Shown here piece by piece: positions 24,956-31,736 of a stretch of 64,000 nt of DNA. The notes below the pieces were generated by a model. It worked only from the letters and a program-made list of their open reading frames with translations. It was not told where the DNA came from and ran no database searches. The DNA comes from Terriglobia bacterium (lineage in GTDB: Bacteria; Acidobacteriota; Terriglobia; Acidiferrales; UBA7541): NCBI GenBank assembly GCA_020073605.1, contig JAIQEW010000005.1, positions 124,001 through 188,000 on the forward strand. The letters run 5' to 3'. Both the position numbers and the translations under genes were made by a program. The stretch's first letter is position 1, and each line of letters opens with the position of its first letter.

Positions 24956-26392
24956 TCATTCACCGTCGAAAGCCTGCTTGAGCCGTATTGCCATCGCCAC
25001 GGCAGCTTCCTGCGGGATGTTCGTAAAACTCAGCAAAAGCCCCTGACGGTCCTCGCGCTCGATGACCCACGGTGACAACGCAGCCGGCGCGAGGCCCCGC
25101 GCTTTAGCACGCGCAACGAGATCGCGGTCGTTCTTGCATCCCGCGACGCGCGCCAGCAGGTGCATGCCGCCCGCTTGAAGTTGCACGCTCATTTGGCCAT
25201 CGAAGACTTCCGCCAGCGCAGCCGCGAGCGCCGCGCGGCGTTCCGAGTACAACGCACGCATCCGCCGGATATGTCGCGCGAAGTGTCCTTCCGTCATGAA
25301 GTCGGCCGTAATCGCCTGGTTGAATATAGGCCGGTCCCGGTACAACAGCTCGTAAATCCGGCCCAATCGGTCGATCTGCGATTCTGGGACGACCACGTAG
25401 CCAAGTCGCAAGCCGGGGAACAGCACCTTGCTAAACGTTCCAACGTAGATCACGCGCCCAGCTTCATCCAGGCTCTTCAATGCCGGCAGTGGCGGACTGC
25501 CATAGCGGAATTCGCTGTCGTAGTCGTCCTCTATGATCCATGCGTCTGCGCTTGTCGCCCAAGACAGTAGATCCAGTCGCCGCCGCGAGCTTAGAGCCAC
25601 GCCCAGCGGAGCTTGATGCGACGGCGTGACATATGCGAATCGGGCTCGCGTCGATCGCGCCATTGCTGCTGAAACGTCCAGACCCTCATCGTCCACGGGC
25701 ACAGGTACCAGCTTGGCGCCCGCAGCTTCCAGTCCCAATCGGATCATGAAATAGCCGGGGTCCTCGAACCAAACCTCGTCATCAGGTTTAAGAAAAGCCC
25801 GGGTGATCATTCCCAGCGCAGCCTGGAAACCGGACGTAATGATCACCTGCTCCGTCGAGCAAAGAATTCCCCGAGAAACTGCAAGGTAAGAACGGACCGC
25901 TTCACGCAACGGTTCGTATCCCGCCGCGCTCGGAGCGCTCAATTCATGCACTTTGATAGAGCGGACATGCCTGATCGCAAGCCGCGACCATAGCTTTCGC
26001 GGAAAGGCATCGAGCGCCGGCAGGCCCATTTGAAACGGTTGGCACGCAAGTATCTCAGTCGCGGGCTCGTCCCAGCGGCGCTTTGGTGCACTGGGCGATT
26101 TTGGAGGAGGCTTGAGGGAGCTGGCCGCCCGAGCCACCTCAGTCCCCGCGGCCCCTTGGCTTACGACGAGCCCTTCAACAGAAAGAAGGCTGTACGCCAA
26201 ATCGATTGTTCCGCGCGAAGTGGAAAGCTGGCTCGCCAAGCTGCGGGACGAAGGGAGCCGTTCGCCCGGGCGCAAAATTCCCTGTGCTATCGCATCGCGA
26301 AATCGCTGATAGATCTGCCGGTAGAAGGGTGTCCGGCTGTGACGATCGAGTTTCAGGCGCATCCGCTCGGATGTGTCGCGGGAATTCATCAT
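24956..26392 (-). CDS. MocR/PdxR-type GntR regulator with aminotransferase domain
   Basis: Transcription factor of 478 aa joining a GntR winged-helix domain (about 10-80, PFYRQIYQRFRDAIAQGIL, LPSSRSLASQLSTSRGT) to a fold-type I PLP aminotransferase-like domain (about 115-470). The PLP lysine region is YVGTFSKVLFPGLRLGYVV, with IIEDDYDSEFRYG upstream. The family uses PLP or an aldimine ligand to control vitamin B6, GABA or other amine genes. It is divergent from the DUF3179 gene and shares about 100 nt of upstream DNA with it, so it is a candidate regulator of that operon. ATG 26392, 26389 and 26428 are all possible starts. Confidence 0.92.
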   Translation of the reverse strand: MMNSRDTSERMRLKLDRHSRTPFYRQIYQRFRDAIAQGILRPGERLPSSRSLASQLSTSRGTIDLAYSLLSVEGLVVSQGAAGTEVARAASSLKPPPKSPSAPKRRWDEPATEILACQPFQMGLPALDAFPRKLWSRLAIRHVRSIKVHELSAPSAAGYEPLREAVRSYLAVSRGILCSTEQVIITSGFQAALGMITRAFLKPDDEVWFEDPGYFMIRLGLEAAGAKLVPVPVDDEGLDVSAAMARSTRARFAYVTPSHQAPLGVALSSRRRLDLLSWATSADAWIIEDDYDSEFRYGSPPLPALKSLDEAGRVIYVGTFSKVLFPGLRLGYVVVPESQIDRLGRIYELLYRDRPIFNQAITADFMTEGHFARHIRRMRALYSERRAALAAALAEVFDGQMSVQLQAGGMHLLARVAGCKNDRDLVARAKARGLAPAALSPWVIEREDRQGLLLSFTNIPQEAAVAMAIRLKQAFDGE

Positions 26393-26464
26393 GGCTCGGT
26401 TATTTCGTTCGGTCTTGGCTCTTCTCATCGTATAGGCATCCGTGCGATATGAATCAGGTTGAGT

Positions 26465-26491: not shown

Positions 26492-27556
26492 ATGAGACTG
26501 AAATACGTTCAGAGCCTGGCGATTGTTGCAGCCGCTGTTGGCATTCTTGGCGGCGGTTCGGCGCTCGCTAAGGGTACATCACCGCAGAGGATGCCGTACA
26601 CCACCGTTGATCATCCGCAGTTCGTTCCCGCATCAGAGGCGACCTTCATGTCCGCCGGCGACGTGCTGATAGGTGTTTCAAGCGGCGACGTTGCCAAGGC
26701 TTATCCAGCCGCTCTACTTGCGCAGCACGGCGTTGTACAGGACCAGATGGCGGACGGGCCCATCGCCATCACCTGGTGAGGGTACTGCAACACAGCCCTC
26801 GTGTTCAGGGCTGAAGCCAAAGGCCAGGCACTCCATTTTGATCCCGACGGCGACGTCGGTGGGAACGAGGTTTTCAAGGACCGCGAAACGGGCAGTCACT
26901 GGCAGCAGTCGGTCTCTACCGCCACGTCCGGACCCCTCAAAGGAACGCGCTTGGCGATCTACCCGTTCTTGATGACCACTTGGGGCGAATGGAATAAACA
27001 GCATCCGAACACGCTCGTGCTGAAACCCGAGCCCGGTTACGCGGAAATCATGCCGAACATGAACAAATTCATCAACCGGGGAATCTCGGGGGGCTTACCG
27101 GATCCAAAGGATGCGCTCAGCCACGACGATCGCCTGCGTCCGCGCGAGATGGTGCTCGGCCTTGAGGTTGGAAAAACGGAGATGGCATATCCGCTCTCGG
27201 CTCTGCGAGAAGTGCGCGTCGTCAACGACCGCATCGGCGGCAAGCCCGTGCTGATTGTCCATCAGCCCGCGTCGGATACCACCACGGCGTTCGTGGCCGA
27301 GTGGAAGGGCAAGGTTCTGCGATTCAAGCCCGCGGATCAAGAGGCCGACCAGCTCTTCGACCTCGAAACTCATTCTTCGTGGAACGCATACGGGCTCTGC
27401 CTTTCGGGGCCGCTCAAGGGCTCTCAATTGAAATCGCTCATCCTCGAGCCGGAATTCTGGTTCGCATGGTCGGAGTTCCACCCGAAGACGAATGTATATC
27501 GGCCGGCAAACCGGCCAAAGAACGAGCCGGGAAACGAAACAAAGAAGGTGCAATGA
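26492..27556 (+). CDS. DUF3179-domain protein with in-frame UGA: predicted selenoprotein (Sec96)
   Basis: The reading frame is continuous from ATG 26492 to 27556 (354 aa) except for one TGA at 26777-26779. Both sides match one DUF3179 protein: PYTTVDHPQFVPASEA and DGPIAITW before the TGA, GYCNTALVF, MTTWGEWNKQHPNTLVL and FWFAWSEFHPKT after it. In the family the segment reads roughly TWCPLCNTA, so the UGA occupies the first Cys of CxxC and gives U-G-Y-C. A Sec signal peptide (MRLKYVQSLAIVAAAVGILGGG) makes it periplasmic. GGAGAG precedes the ATG. A 7-bp hairpin follows the UGA. Function of DUF3179 is unknown; UxxC suggests a redox role. The alternative is a simple nonsense mutation. Confidence 0.8.
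26793..26813 (+). promoter_or_regulatory. Candidate bacterial SECIS hairpin
   Basis: CAGCCCT and AGGGCTG form a perfect 7-bp stem around the loop CGTGTTC. The loop begins 20 nt after the UGA and has G at its second position. Both features fit the general rules for bacterial SECIS elements, which sit inside the coding region directly after the Sec codon. Confidence 0.55.
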
Positions 27557-27600: not shown

Positions 27601-28077
27601 ATGATCACTCGCCGTGAACTGAACAAAGTCATGAGCCTAGCTTTCGCCAGTCTCTTCTCAGGAGCCTCGTCGGAGCTTCTCGCCGTTCAGGCGCCGCCTC
27701 AGCAAAATTCACAGGACCACGGCGCACCCGTGCGGCCTTCCCCACCGAAGCCGCTCATCGAAGAACCTCTCGAAGCCTTGCCCGAGTCCGTAGCCAGCCT
27801 GCTCATTCTTAACATTCCCGCTCACAATCCTTCCTCGACACGCGCGTTTACCGGACACCAGCACTCCGGTCCCGTCTTCGCGTACATCTTAGAAGGAACC
27901 ATCGAAAACCAAGTCGAGCCGGACCCGCCGAAAACGTATGCTGCCGGCGACGTCTTTTTCGAGCCCACCATGCACGTCCATCGCATGCTCCGCAACTTGA
28001 GCGAAACACAGCCCGCAAGGATCTTGGTCTTCCAGATTGTGCCGAACGGCAAGGCAGGGGCCATTGCCGTAAAGTGA
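27601..28077 (+). CDS. Exported cupin-domain protein
   Basis: 158-aa protein with an N-terminal export signal containing a twin arginine (TRRELNKVMSLAFASLFSG). A single cupin domain follows (about 65-150): TGHQHSGPVFAYILEGTIE supplies the first metal motif, and AAGDVFFEPTMHVHRM the second. AAGGAGAG precedes the ATG. It lies 44 nt after the DUF3179 gene and probably forms an operon with it. Substrate unknown. Confidence 0.85.
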   Translation: MITRRELNKVMSLAFASLFSGASSELLAVQAPPQQNSQDHGAPVRPSPPKPLIEEPLEALPESVASLLILNIPAHNPSSTRAFTGHQHSGPVFAYILEGTIENQVEPDPPKTYAAGDVFFEPTMHVHRMLRNLSETQPARILVFQIVPNGKAGAIAVK

Positions 28078-28119: not shown

Positions 28120-28746
28120 ATGGCCAAGTTATACTCAGCCATGCTTTCCCGAGGTCGCACGGTTCGCGAAACCGAGGTCAAACTCCGCGTTAAGGACGTT
28201 AATGGCCTGATCCGCAAGCTGAAGCGCCTCGGTTGCCACTGCTCCGGCCGCGTCCTCGAGCGAAACACTCTCTTCGATACGCCGGATTCGGATTTCCGCC
28301 GCCGTGGCCGGCTTCTTCGGGTTCGGACCGAGGCCCCCGCTCCTTCCAGGCTCGTTCGGGGTGGATCGCGGCGAACGTTGATGACTTCGAAGAGTCCTGC
28401 TCTGGCCTCCGCTGGCTCGCGTTACAAGGAAAAGCTCGAGAGGGAACTGGTGGTGCGATCGGCGGCGCGCTGGCCGGCCGCCCTTCGCTCGCTGGGCTTC
28501 CGGCCCGGATTCTCATACGAGAAATACCGCACCACTTTTCGGCTGCCCGGCCTGCATCTGGACCTGGATGAAACGCCGGTGGGGGTGTTTCTTGAGCTCG
28601 AAGGCTCTCCCCGGGCCATCGATCGCGCGGCCAGAAGCCTCGGTTTTTCGCGCCGCGACTACATCCGGGGCACGTATTGGGACCTGTATGCCGCCGAATG
28701 CCGTCGGCGCGGCCGCGTTCCGCGAAATATGCTGTTCGCCGCGTAA
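28120..28746 (+). CDS. CYTH-domain protein (class IV adenylate cyclase / triphosphatase-like)
   Basis: Triphosphate tunnel metalloenzyme superfamily. The ExExK signature is ETEVKLRV near the N-terminus; LERNTLFDTPD, LRVRTE, EKYRTTFRL and HLDLDETPVGVFLELEG follow the usual order of tunnel strands. Members cyclise ATP or hydrolyse inorganic or thiamine triphosphate, and the choice cannot be read from the sequence. A second ATG at 28141 is possible; neither has a clear ribosome site. Confidence 0.87.
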   Translation: MAKLYSAMLSRGRTVRETEVKLRVKDVNGLIRKLKRLGCHCSGRVLERNTLFDTPDSDFRRRGRLLRVRTEAPAPSRLVRGGSRRTLMTSKSPALASAGSRYKEKLERELVVRSAARWPAALRSLGFRPGFSYEKYRTTFRLPGLHLDLDETPVGVFLELEGSPRAIDRAARSLGFSRRDYIRGTYWDLYAAECRRRGRVPRNMLFAA

Positions 28747-28802: not shown

Positions 28803-29115
28803 TCGAACCGGGGACAAATGCATCGCAATGGAAGCACGTTCGTCCAATTCGGAGCCTGGAGGTAGTCGCTCCGCCGGGTCTGTCGCGATTGCCCGGGCGG
28901 AGTCGGCCATTTTCGCGCTCGTTTTCGTTCGCTGCTCCCGCGCTGTCGGCGAGACGCGCAGTTTGCTTGCCGATTGGGTTTCCGGGAACAGGGAGGCGAG
29001 GCCCGGCCTGAGGTAATCTGAGGGCGGTTTTCCGTCTGCCCGTGGCCGGATGAATTGCCGGTCCCGGGCATTTTTTTTGTCCTGTCGCTTGCCCTGATGA
29101 ATGAAGGAGCCAGAG
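28803..29115 (+). ncRNA. Long 5' leader with attenuator (metal-sensing RNA suspected)
   Basis: About 310 nt without a gene between a promoter and the ATG at 29116, containing an intrinsic terminator at 29038-29078. An upstream CCGGCC (29003-29008) can pair with GGCCGG (29044-29049), the terminator's 5' arm. GGGC near 29022 can also pair with the GCCC that begins the terminator. Mutually exclusive pairing of this kind is what riboswitch expression platforms use. The genes downstream handle divalent metals. I could not match the aptamer to the ykoK or yybP-ykoY consensus. Confidence 0.45.
29038..29078 (+). terminator. Intrinsic terminator within the leader (attenuator)
   Basis: GCCCGTGGCCGG pairs with CCGGTCCCGGGC (one mismatch, one G-U) over an 8-nt loop, followed after one A by eight T residues (29071-29078). 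It lies 37 nt upstream of a start codon rather than after a gene. Confidence 0.85.
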
Positions 29116-30357
29116 ATGCTGCACGCAACCGAAATTCTGGGCGCCGAAACCTACGACTCTTTCGGCAATTTTGTCGGCCGCGTTAAGGAGATGTTCGTCG
29201 TTCCGGACGAACAGCCGAACCGCATCTCTCGTCTTCTGCTCGGCCGCGGCAAGTTCCGCCCGCTGGTGGCGCGCTACGACCAGATCGAGTCGGTCGCCCC
29301 GGGCCGCGTGCGGCTCACCACGGACGAATCCGCCCTCGAGCTCTATCACCCGAACGAAGCCTGGCTCGCCGTGCAGAAGGACCTGCTCGACCAGCAGATC
29401 ATCGACACCAACGGCCGCAAGGTGGTGCGCGTGAACGACGTCGATCTGATCGACCAGCGCACGAATGGCAACACCGAACTGCGCGTCACGCAAGTGGATG
29501 TGGGCATCCCCGGAGCGGTCCGCCGCCTGTTGCAGGGACTCGTGCCGCCGATGGGCATCCGCCGCATTCAGAGAAGGCTCCCGCAGAGGACGATCCGCTG
29601 GGAATTCGTCAACCTGATCGAGCCGGACCCGCTGCGGCGAGTGAAGCTGCGCATGTCGAGCGACAAGCTGGCCGAGCTGCACCCGGCCGATCTCGCGGAC
29701 ATCATGGAGGAGATTTCGCCGGCCGAGCGGCAGTCCATCATCGATTCGCTCGATGAGGAGACCGCCGCCGAGACGATCGCCGAGCTGGACAAGCGGCTTC
29801 AGACGCAGGTGGTCGAAAAGCTCGATACTGAGAAGGCGGCCGACATCATCGAGGAGATGAACCCGGACGAGGCCGCCGACCTGATCCAGAGCCTCGAGCC
29901 CGCAAAATCCAAGGAAGTCCTCGACGAGATGGAACACCGCGAGGCGCACGAGGTGAAGGAGCTGATGCGCTTCGACGAGAACGCCGCCGGCGGCATGATG
30001 ACGACCGAGATCGTCGTGGTCGGCGAGGACGCCACGCGCGGCGAGGTGATCGACTACATCCGTTTCCACGAAATCTCGCTCGACCAGCTCGACAACATCG
30101 TGCTGATCAACCGCGAGGCTGCGCTCGCCGGCACGGTCCCGGTCGCGCGCCTGGTTCTGGCCGACGCCGACCAGCGCATGGCCGATCTCGGCTCGGAGCC
30201 GTTGCTTTCGGTTCCGCCGGATGCGAGCGACAAGGATGTCTTCGAGATTTTCGACAAATATAATCTGCGCAGCCTGACCGTGGTCAACGAGATGAATTGC
30301 CCGATCGGCGCGATTGCCGTGGACGACATCGTGAGCCGTCTGCGCGCCAGGATCTGA
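29116..30357 (+). CDS. PRC-barrel / MgtE-N / CBS-domain protein without a membrane pore
   Basis: Soluble 413-aa protein. Residues about 1-75 resemble a PRC barrel (EILGAETYDSFGNFVGRVKE), with a second similar module after it. Residues about 185-275 match the MgtE N-terminal superhelix (LHPADLADIMEEISPAERQ, EKAADIIEEMNPDEAADLI). Residues about 285-405 match a CBS pair. The MgtE transmembrane domain is missing. In MgtE these domains sense cytosolic Mg2+ and gate the channel. The NRAMP gene follows after 26 nt, so this may sense metal for that transporter. ATG 29116 has AAGGAG 6 nt upstream; ATG 29101 is the alternative. Confidence 0.88.
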   Translation: MLHATEILGAETYDSFGNFVGRVKEMFVVPDEQPNRISRLLLGRGKFRPLVARYDQIESVAPGRVRLTTDESALELYHPNEAWLAVQKDLLDQQIIDTNGRKVVRVNDVDLIDQRTNGNTELRVTQVDVGIPGAVRRLLQGLVPPMGIRRIQRRLPQRTIRWEFVNLIEPDPLRRVKLRMSSDKLAELHPADLADIMEEISPAERQSIIDSLDEETAAETIAELDKRLQTQVVEKLDTEKAADIIEEMNPDEAADLIQSLEPAKSKEVLDEMEHREAHEVKELMRFDENAAGGMMTTEIVVVGEDATRGEVIDYIRFHEISLDQLDNIVLINREAALAGTVPVARLVLADADQRMADLGSEPLLSVPPDASDKDVFEIFDKYNLRSLTVVNEMNCPIGAIAVDDIVSRLRARI

Positions 30358-30383: not shown

Positions 30384-31736
30384 ATGAATACGTGGGGCAC
30401 ATTGACGGACACCTTCTCGCGGCTGGCGAGCGGGGGCAGGGAATTCAGCCGGCGCACCCGCACCGTGCGCAGGCGGCTCGCTGTGTTCATGGCCGTGGTC
30501 GGGCCGGGATTGATCACGTCGAACGTGGACAACGACGCCGGCGGCATCAGCACGTACTCGGCCGCGGGCGCTCAATTCGGCTACACGCTGCTGTGGTCGC
30601 TCATTCCAATGACGATCGCGCTCTACGTGAGCGAGGAGATGTGCGCCCGCATGGGAGTGGTCACGGGCAAGGGCCTCGCCGACCTGATTCGCGAGGAGTT
30701 CGGATTCCGCTCCACGTTTTTTGTGATGATCGCGGCTTTCTTTGTGAATCTTTTCAACACGGTCGCGGAGTTTTCGGGCGTCGCCGAAGCCTCGGAGCTC
30801 ATGCACGTCAGCAAGTATGTTTCCGTGCCCCTGGCCGCAATCGCCGTCTGGCTGCTCGTCGTCTACGGCACGTATCGTATTGTGGAGAAGATCTTCCTGG
30901 TCGCGTGCGCGTTCTATCTTTCCTACGTCATATCGTCGTTTTACGCCAAACCGGATTGGCTTTTTGCGGCGAAACAAATGGTGGTTCCATCCGTCCACAT
31001 GAGCTCGGCCTACCTGCTGATGTTGATCGGCCTTGTGGGAACCACGATTGCTCCGTGGCAGTTCTTCTATCTCCAAGCCGGATTCGTGGAAAAGCGCGTC
31101 GCGGCGCGCCAGTACAAACACGCGAGACTCGACGTTCTTGTCGGCAGCATCTCCTGCATGGTGATCGTGTTTTTCATCATCGTGGCTTGCGCGGCGACTC
31201 TCAACAAGCACGGGCTCACCAACATCTCCAGTGCGGGGGAGGCCGCCCAGGCTCTGGTGCCCCTTGCCGGGAAATGGGCCGGCGGGCTCTTCGCGTTCGG
31301 GTTGCTGAACGCGTCGCTCTTCGCCGCGTCGATTTTGCCGCTGTCTACGGCGCACGTGATCTGTGAGGGACTCGGATTCGAGACCGGACTCGACCGGAAA
31401 TTCAAGGAAGCCCCGGCGTTCTATTCGCTCTACACGATGCAAATCGTGGTCGGAGCCGGGATCATCCTGATTCCCAGGGTGCCGCTGTGGAAGATTCTGA
31501 TTTACTCGCAGGTAGGCAACGGCATCTGGCTTCCCGTGGTGCTGATTTTCATTCTGCTGCTGGTCAACCGCCGCGACCTGATGGGCGATCACGTCAACTC
31601 GTGGGGCTTCAACGTGATCGCGTGGGCGTCGAGCATCATCATGATCGTGCTGACGCTGATCCTGATGTACACCGCGATCTTCCAGCCATCGAGCGGTCTT
31701 TCGGGCTTCCTGCTTCACCTCTTCCACTTCCACTGA
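30384..31736 (+). CDS. NRAMP-family divalent metal transporter
   Basis: Proton-coupled Mn2+/Fe2+ or related divalent cation importer, 450 aa, with about 11 hydrophobic helices. The first helix motif reads GPGLITSNVDNDAGGISTYS, so the metal-binding DPGN of true MntH is replaced by DNDAGG, a divergent NRAMP-related form. LIGTTIAPWQFFYLQA-like sequence (LVGTTIAPWQFFYLQAGFVE) carries the second site region. Because the DPGN motif differs, the transported ion could be Mg2+, Mn2+ or another. Cotranscribed with the upstream MgtE-N/CBS protein. Confidence 0.9.
   Translation: MNTWGTLTDTFSRLASGGREFSRRTRTVRRRLAVFMAVVGPGLITSNVDNDAGGISTYSAAGAQFGYTLLWSLIPMTIALYVSEEMCARMGVVTGKGLADLIREEFGFRSTFFVMIAAFFVNLFNTVAEFSGVAEASELMHVSKYVSVPLAAIAVWLLVVYGTYRIVEKIFLVACAFYLSYVISSFYAKPDWLFAAKQMVVPSVHMSSAYLLMLIGLVGTTIAPWQFFYLQAGFVEKRVAARQYKHARLDVLVGSISCMVIVFFIIVACAATLNKHGLTNISSAGEAAQALVPLAGKWAGGLFAFGLLNASLFAASILPLSTAHVICEGLGFETGLDRKFKEAPAFYSLYTMQIVVGAGIILIPRVPLWKILIYSQVGNGIWLPVVLIFILLLVNRRDLMGDHVNSWGFNVIAWASSIIMIVLTLILMYTAIFQPSSGLSGFLLHLFHFH

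What the first reader, a model, noticed from the sequence alone, without database searches (positions are those of the whole stretch)
26492..27556. In-frame UGA replaces the first Cys of CxxC in a DUF3179 protein: probable selenoprotein
The 1065-nt frame is intact on both sides of a single TGA (26777-26779). The two halves together make one complete DUF3179 protein. The stop falls precisely where the family has Cys in a C-P-L-C type motif, giving W-UGA-G-Y-C-N-T-A. UGA at a CxxC Cys, with no other stops or frameshifts and good family match after it, is the classic signature of Sec insertion. A random nonsense mutation would hit this codon only by chance. A UxxC protein exported to the periplasm would be a redox enzyme candidate in a family of unknown function. 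Recall of any prior selenoprotein label for this family could not be checked.
Basis: partly seen in the sequence, partly recalled or inferred. Interest (0 to 1): 0.93.

Follow-up and report, generated by a model that had tools for sequence, protein, structure and literature searches.

The report
Acidobacterial DUF3179 selenoprotein with cupin partner
This gene of a likely acidobacterium has one in-frame UGA that is predicted to be read as selenocysteine, giving a likely exported redox protein of a family that reviews already list as a selenoprotein family, and it sits beside a cupin gene with which it likely works.

Summary
Frame 26492-27556 has one internal TGA (codon 96); reading through it gives a complete DUF3179 protein (PF11376, E 1.7e-65). 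Comparison favours selenocysteine. (1) The genome has tRNA-Sec, SelA, SelB, SelD and a formate-dehydrogenase-like frame with its own in-frame UGA. (2) At 121 distinct homologous places the codon is 67 TGA, 52 Cys, 2 others, no TAA/TAG. (3) A hairpin starting 13 nt after the UGA is conserved with compensatory changes, and its codons are frozen (synonymous difference 0.09 against 0.555 elsewhere); the three close Cys relatives have lost this stem. (4) Strong SelA is in 53 of 53 genomes with the UGA form and 22 of 39 with Cys forms only. (5) Cys forms nest inside Sec clades. The kind is known: two reviews list DUF3179 as a UxxC/T selenoprotein family, and NCBI names relatives '(seleno)protein'. 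Apparently new: a cupin gene lies beside all 20 close UGA relatives examined, and the two are fused in 16 of 120 listed homologues; the predicted fold is a duplicated, Rieske-like barrel without the iron-sulphur ligands (suggestive only). A role as an extracytoplasmic selenol/thiol oxidoreductase is inferred, untested.

The parts
26492..27556 (+). DUF3179 gene, ATG to final TGA, predicted selenoprotein of 354 residues
26482..26485 (+). GGAG, possible ribosome-binding site before the ATG
   Evidence: read by eye in the sequence; not tested
26492..26569 (+). codons 1-26, likely export signal peptide (ends A-L-A)
   Evidence: by eye from the translation; no signal-peptide program was run
26777..26779 (+). 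in-frame UGA, predicted selenocysteine 96, first position of U-G-Y-C
26793..26813 (+). predicted SECIS hairpin: stem 26793-26799 / 26807-26813, loop CGTGTTC
   Evidence: own-sequence folding not decisive
26801..27556 (+). open frame from a GTG after the UGA; close relatives in the databases are annotated from this point
27601..28077 (+). cupin gene (Cupin_2), conserved neighbour; N-terminus looks like a Tat-type signal by eye
   Evidence: fused to DUF3179 elsewhere

Best explanation
The in-frame UGA at 26777-26779 is likely decoded as selenocysteine, directed by a predicted SECIS hairpin at 26793-26813 and carried out by the SelA, SelB, SelD and tRNA-Sec that this genome encodes, giving a predicted 354-residue DUF3179 protein with a U-G-Y-C motif. 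Shown by computation: the intact read-through frame, the Sec machinery genes, the UGA/Cys alternation over the family, and the conserved, covarying hairpin. Inferred: the protein is exported by its N-terminal signal peptide, and Sec96 and Cys99 form a reversible selenenylsulphide, so that it would act as an extracytoplasmic selenol/thiol oxidoreductase; invariant His79 may share the site. It would work together with the likely exported cupin protein encoded next to it. Substrate, electron donor and the cupin's role are unknown.
For: tRNA-Sec, SelA (18), SelB (19), SelD (20); a formate-dehydrogenase-like frame whose one UGA lies in RVUHGP. Codon 96: 67 TGA, 52 Cys, 2 other of 121. Synonymous freeze at codons +5 to +11, 0.09 against 0.555 in 22 close UGA genes; the ten lowest of 107 windows overlap it. 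Stem pairing 202 of 203 cells in 29 sequences, 0 of 2000 arm shuffles as high. A near-complete stem in one of three registers in 61 of 67 UGA loci against 7 of 52 Cys loci. SelA in 53 of 53 genomes with the UGA form, 22 of 39 with Cys forms only. Tree: Cys forms nest in Sec clades, at least 8 changes. C96, C99 and H79 invariant in 75 of 75 aligned proteins. Cupin beside 20 of 20 close UGA loci.
Against: The window's own sequence does not fold better than shuffles over 50 nt (z -0.11, another structure preferred) and only weakly over 36 nt (12 of 200 shuffles as good). The hairpin stretch ranks ninth of 1044 in this gene. No Rfam match in the window. The close Cys relatives lose this stem but can fold another hairpin there, so hairpin stability alone does not separate the forms. 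SelA co-occurrence is not corrected for relatedness. 9 of 67 UGA forms lack the second Cys, so a Se-S pair cannot be the rule for the whole family. No experiment; redox role and partnership are inferred.
Confidence: 0.88

Rival explanations
1. A plain nonsense mutation, or an assembly error, in a Cys-type DUF3179 gene: a pseudogene.
For: A TGA interrupts the frame, and four of 120 listed database relatives are annotated only from after the stop.
Against: The same UGA stands in 67 of 121 distinct places, never TAA or TAG, with frozen synonymous codons and a covarying stem behind it. The rest of the frame is intact.
Confidence: 0.02
2. UGA is read as Sec, but the site serves metal binding (H79, Sec/Cys96, Cys99) rather than redox cycling; with the cupin it would be a metal-handling pair.
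For: H79, C96 and C99 are invariant in 75 of 75 aligned proteins; the conserved neighbour is a cupin, a fold that often binds metal (recalled); the fold looks Rieske-like.
Against: 9 of 67 UGA forms have Ala or Thr instead of Cys99. Most known UxxC selenoproteins are taken to be redox-active (recalled; passages of PMC2398784 and the PMC9312934 abstract argue that way).
Confidence: 0.2
3. UGA read by near-cognate or reassigned tRNA (for example as Trp) instead of Sec.
For: None found.
Against: The same gene ends in TGA. The alternative in relatives is a Cys codon in 52 of 54 non-TGA places, never Trp. The hairpin and the Sec genes would be unexplained.
Confidence: 0.01
4. Two products: a short peptide ending at the UGA and a separate protein started at GTG 26801, as database annotation of close relatives implies.
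For: Four of 120 listed homologues are 243-251-residue versions starting there; an open frame from GTG 26801 exists.
Against: The cut removes the family's most conserved site (H79, C96, C99); Cys relatives are one uninterrupted protein.
Confidence: 0.02

Closest known systems
DUF3179 domain-containing selenoprotein family (pfam11376, UxxC/T), listed in PMC9312934 and PMC13188914; the first cites Zhang and Gladyshev 2007, on an Olavius algarvensis symbiont (not held, not read)
   Same: Same Pfam family, UGA at the first position of the UxxC/T motif.
   Different: Acidobacterial host (likely), U-G-Y-C sequence, a cupin neighbour; whether the earlier members have these was not checked.
NCBI 'DUF3179 domain-containing (seleno)protein' records (P0009, P0032, P0044, P0072)
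   Same: 56-64% identical relatives from Bryobacteraceae and Vicinamibacterales genomes.
   Different: Printed with C at this position; whether a source had U cannot be told, as no listed protein bears U.
Formate-dehydrogenase-type selenoprotein (same genome, L204)
   Same: In-frame UGA followed by a hairpin at +15 to +32 counted from its U.
   Different: Unrelated protein.
Rieske domains and NirD-like small subunits
   Different: No CxH...CxxH ligand motif in the protein; no sequence relation detected; two tandem copies.

Membership tests
DUF3179 (PF11376) | profile score over the curated cut-off along the whole domain | tested here: met
   221.8 bits against 27, profile 7-292 of 292
Bacterial selenoprotein | genome encodes tRNA-Sec, SelA, SelB, SelD | tested here: met
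Bacterial selenoprotein | UGA aligned with Cys in homologues | tested here: met
   67 TGA, 52 Cys codons, 2 others of 121
Bacterial selenoprotein | SECIS hairpin just after the UGA | tested here: met
   by comparison; single-sequence folding not significant
Bacterial selenoprotein | selenium actually incorporated | not testable with these tools
   needs 75Se label or mass spectrometry
Rieske iron-sulphur protein | Rieske-type fold | tested here: inconclusive
Rieske iron-sulphur protein | CxH...CxxH cluster ligands | tested here: not met
   motif absent from the translation
Thioredoxin-fold UxxC oxidoreductase | thioredoxin fold around the UxxC | tested here: inconclusive
   model mostly beta with the motif at a strand end; no thioredoxin-fold row among those listed, which does not exclude it

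The most novel reading that the evidence does not exclude
The acidobacterial W-U-x-x-C DUF3179 protein and its cupin neighbour form a two-part exported redox module, in which a selenocysteine is mounted on a duplicated Rieske-type barrel that has given up its iron-sulphur cluster: a selenoenzyme architecture not described before.
Probability: 0.3. Interest if true: 0.65.

Novelty: new member of a known kind. Interest (0 to 1): 0.4.

Why it matters
It adds a well-supported branch to a known but uncharacterised selenoprotein family. In the sampled genomes of this class the family bears UGA at more than half of the places read (67 of 121), with repeated Sec/Cys switches and loss of the stem that can be read directly in sequence. 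The cupin pairing gives a functional handle on a domain of unknown function, and the truncated database entries show how ordinary gene calling hides such genes.

Tried and rejected

Papers. PMC9312934, PMC13188914, PMC12013277, PMC2398784, PMC1794560 and PMC9230427: passages only. Zhang and Gladyshev 2007 (gkm514): not held, nothing read. Searches 'DUF3179' (3 papers), 'selenoprotein'+'DUF3179' (2), 'PF11376' (1) and 'selenoprotein'+'cupin'+'selenocysteine' (3, judged by listing only) showed no paper on the cupin pairing or the fold. That covers this library only; the listings were seen, not read through.

Full report
Observation. The frame 26492-27556 (+) starts with ATG after a GGAG, carries a single internal TGA at 26777-26779 and ends with TGA at 27554-27556. 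Read through, it is one DUF3179 protein: PF11376, 221.8 bits over residues 39-333. The window lies in a 3.66-Mb genome of 30 contigs, 93.61% complete. The eight named loci nearest to the gene are all from acidobacterial records (Acidobacteria, Candidatus Acidiferrales, Terriglobia, Bryobacteraceae, Bryobacterales), so the host is most likely an acidobacterium; its name is not given.

Machinery. Two tRNA matches pass the tRNA-Sec cut-off of 47 bits. One (67.5 bits) is called tRNA-Sec with anticodon TCA by ARAGORN, the other (48.3 bits) tRNA-Ser. SelA, SelB (369.5 bits over 242.25; the other nine matches lie below the cut-off) and SelD (369.7 over 125; the other two lie below) are present and confirmed against NCBIfam and Pfam. 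Of five molybdopterin-oxidoreductase matches one has an in-frame TGA. It is a formate-dehydrogenase-like frame of 1062 codons whose one UGA falls in RVUHGP, the classic Sec site as recalled, followed by a hairpin at +15 to +32 from its U. So the genome encodes a complete set of Sec genes and at least one further probable selenoprotein.

Family-wide column. P0001 was searched in 61 genomes (own and relatives; 19 with a match) and in 299 genomes of the class (95 with a match). In the genus, 5 of 20 genomes, own included, have it. I fetched the matches that seemed to span residue 96 and read the aligned codon in 127 of 130 loci. Without six duplicates: 67 TGA, 47 TGC, 5 TGT, 1 TCC, 1 TAT, no TAA or TAG, of 121. 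The third residue after the UGA is Cys in 58, Ala in 5 and Thr in 4 of the 67. The review label is 'UxxC/T'.

SECIS. In 22 close UGA genes synonymous codon choice is frozen at codons +5 to +11 after the UGA: mean pairwise difference 0.09 at 7 codons against 0.555 at 128 others. Of 107 seven-codon windows the ten lowest overlap this site. Arg +10 is AGG in 22 of 22, although AGG makes up 29 of 402 of their other Arg codons. The three close Cys relatives use CGC, CGC and CGG there and have Ala in place of Leu +7. Counted from the U of UGA, the stem 17-23/31-37 pairs in 146 of 147 cells of 21 sequences. A second subgroup has a different stem at 17-23/29-35 (56 of 56 in 8 sequences). Together 202 of 203 cells pair, against a mean of 173 for arm shuffles, and 0 of 2000 reach it. 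In the window the second pair is A-U where most have G-C. A third subgroup (31 sequences) carries a CACACC-GGUCU-GGUGUG hairpin nearer the UGA, almost without variation. UGA forms fold more stably at +12 to +41 than Cys forms (mean -11.3 against -6.8 kcal/mol; 59 and 45 distinct stretches). A near-complete stem in one of the three registers is found in 61 of 67 UGA loci and 7 of 52 Cys loci. Against this: the close Cys relatives keep only 2 to 3 of the 7 pairs but can fold another hairpin there, at -8.9 to -12.1 kcal/mol; the window's own 50-nt stretch is not more stable than shuffles, the 36-nt stretch only weakly so; and the hairpin stretch ranks ninth of 1044 in this gene.

Co-occurrence and history. 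Over the same 299 genomes, SelA at E 1e-40 or better is present in 53 of 53 genomes with a UGA form and in 22 of 39 with Cys forms only; three genomes whose match misses residue 96 were left out (Fisher p 3.6e-8, not corrected for relatedness). In a tree of 118 proteins (67 Sec, 51 Cys; quick method; the two other forms and one shorter row left out) at least 8 changes are needed, 7 forced by starred branches; shuffled labels need 38. The window's gene sits in a starred clade of 20 Sec and 3 Cys rows; of the three Cys genomes, two have no SelA match and one has. Fourteen Cys rows of family f11 form one starred clade inside a starred set of 20 Sec and 15 Cys rows; their genomes have no strong SelA match (six have weak ones, E 1e-7 to 1e-4).

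Partner. The cupin gene at 27601-28077 (Cupin_2) recurs beside 20 of 20 close UGA loci: 12 on the same strand downstream (one cut by a contig end), 8 convergent. It also lies beside all 3 distinct close Cys relatives, but was not found beside L028, L063 or 9 loci of other subgroups within flanks of about 1.5 kb or less; 38 of 130 loci were examined, four of them duplicates. In neighbourhoods of 20 relatives (7 to 13 kb), DUF3179 (21 of 21 loci, window included) and the cupin (19 of 21) are the widely shared genes; the other large clusters look, by the printed coordinates, like reading-frame shadows of these two. In 16 of the 120 listed homologues DUF3179 is fused to cupin domains; the window's cupin is 64% identical over 72 residues to one of them. 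The four fused proteins that I read (P0027, P0037, P0044, P0072) are printed with C at this position.

Database state. Four of 120 listed homologues are versions truncated after the UGA (P0003, P0004, P0008, P0052), two of them 90% identical to this protein. NCBI names some relatives 'DUF3179 domain-containing (seleno)protein'. The family is already on record as a selenoprotein family, and the finding is a well-supported new member.

Mechanism. Most likely SelB with Sec-tRNA reads the UGA at the hairpin; the protein is exported; Sec96-Cys99 acts as a redox pair; the cupin protein assists. The decoding step is strongly supported by comparison; export, redox cycling and partnership are inferred.

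Noticed in passing
L204 1189-4377 (own genome, contig C7): A formate-dehydrogenase-like frame with one in-frame UGA (RVUHGP), a second probable selenoprotein of this genome, with a hairpin after the UGA.
   Followed up: partly
L064, L069, L066 and 28 other loci, right after the UGA: A second DUF3179 subgroup (Y-U-T-L-C-H-T-G-L-V-W) carries a nearly invariant, different hairpin (CACACC-GGUCU-GGUGUG) nearer the UGA: hairpins of different sequence in one family.
   Followed up: partly
L029, L041, L091, L102, L038, L048, L049, L124, L142: DUF3179 genes with UGA but Ala or Thr at the second Cys position (U-P-L-A, U-P-L-T, U-P-I-T), so a Sec without a partner Cys in the motif.
   Followed up: no
24956-26428 (-): MocR-type regulator (GntR plus aminotransferase domains) divergent from the DUF3179 gene; not seen beside its relatives.
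   Followed up: partly
29101-30357 and 30384-31736 (+): Adjacent genes that look like an MgtE-type and an Nramp-type metal transporter (by eye from the translations; not searched).
   Followed up: no
28120-28743 (+): CYTH-domain protein just downstream of the cupin gene.
   Followed up: no
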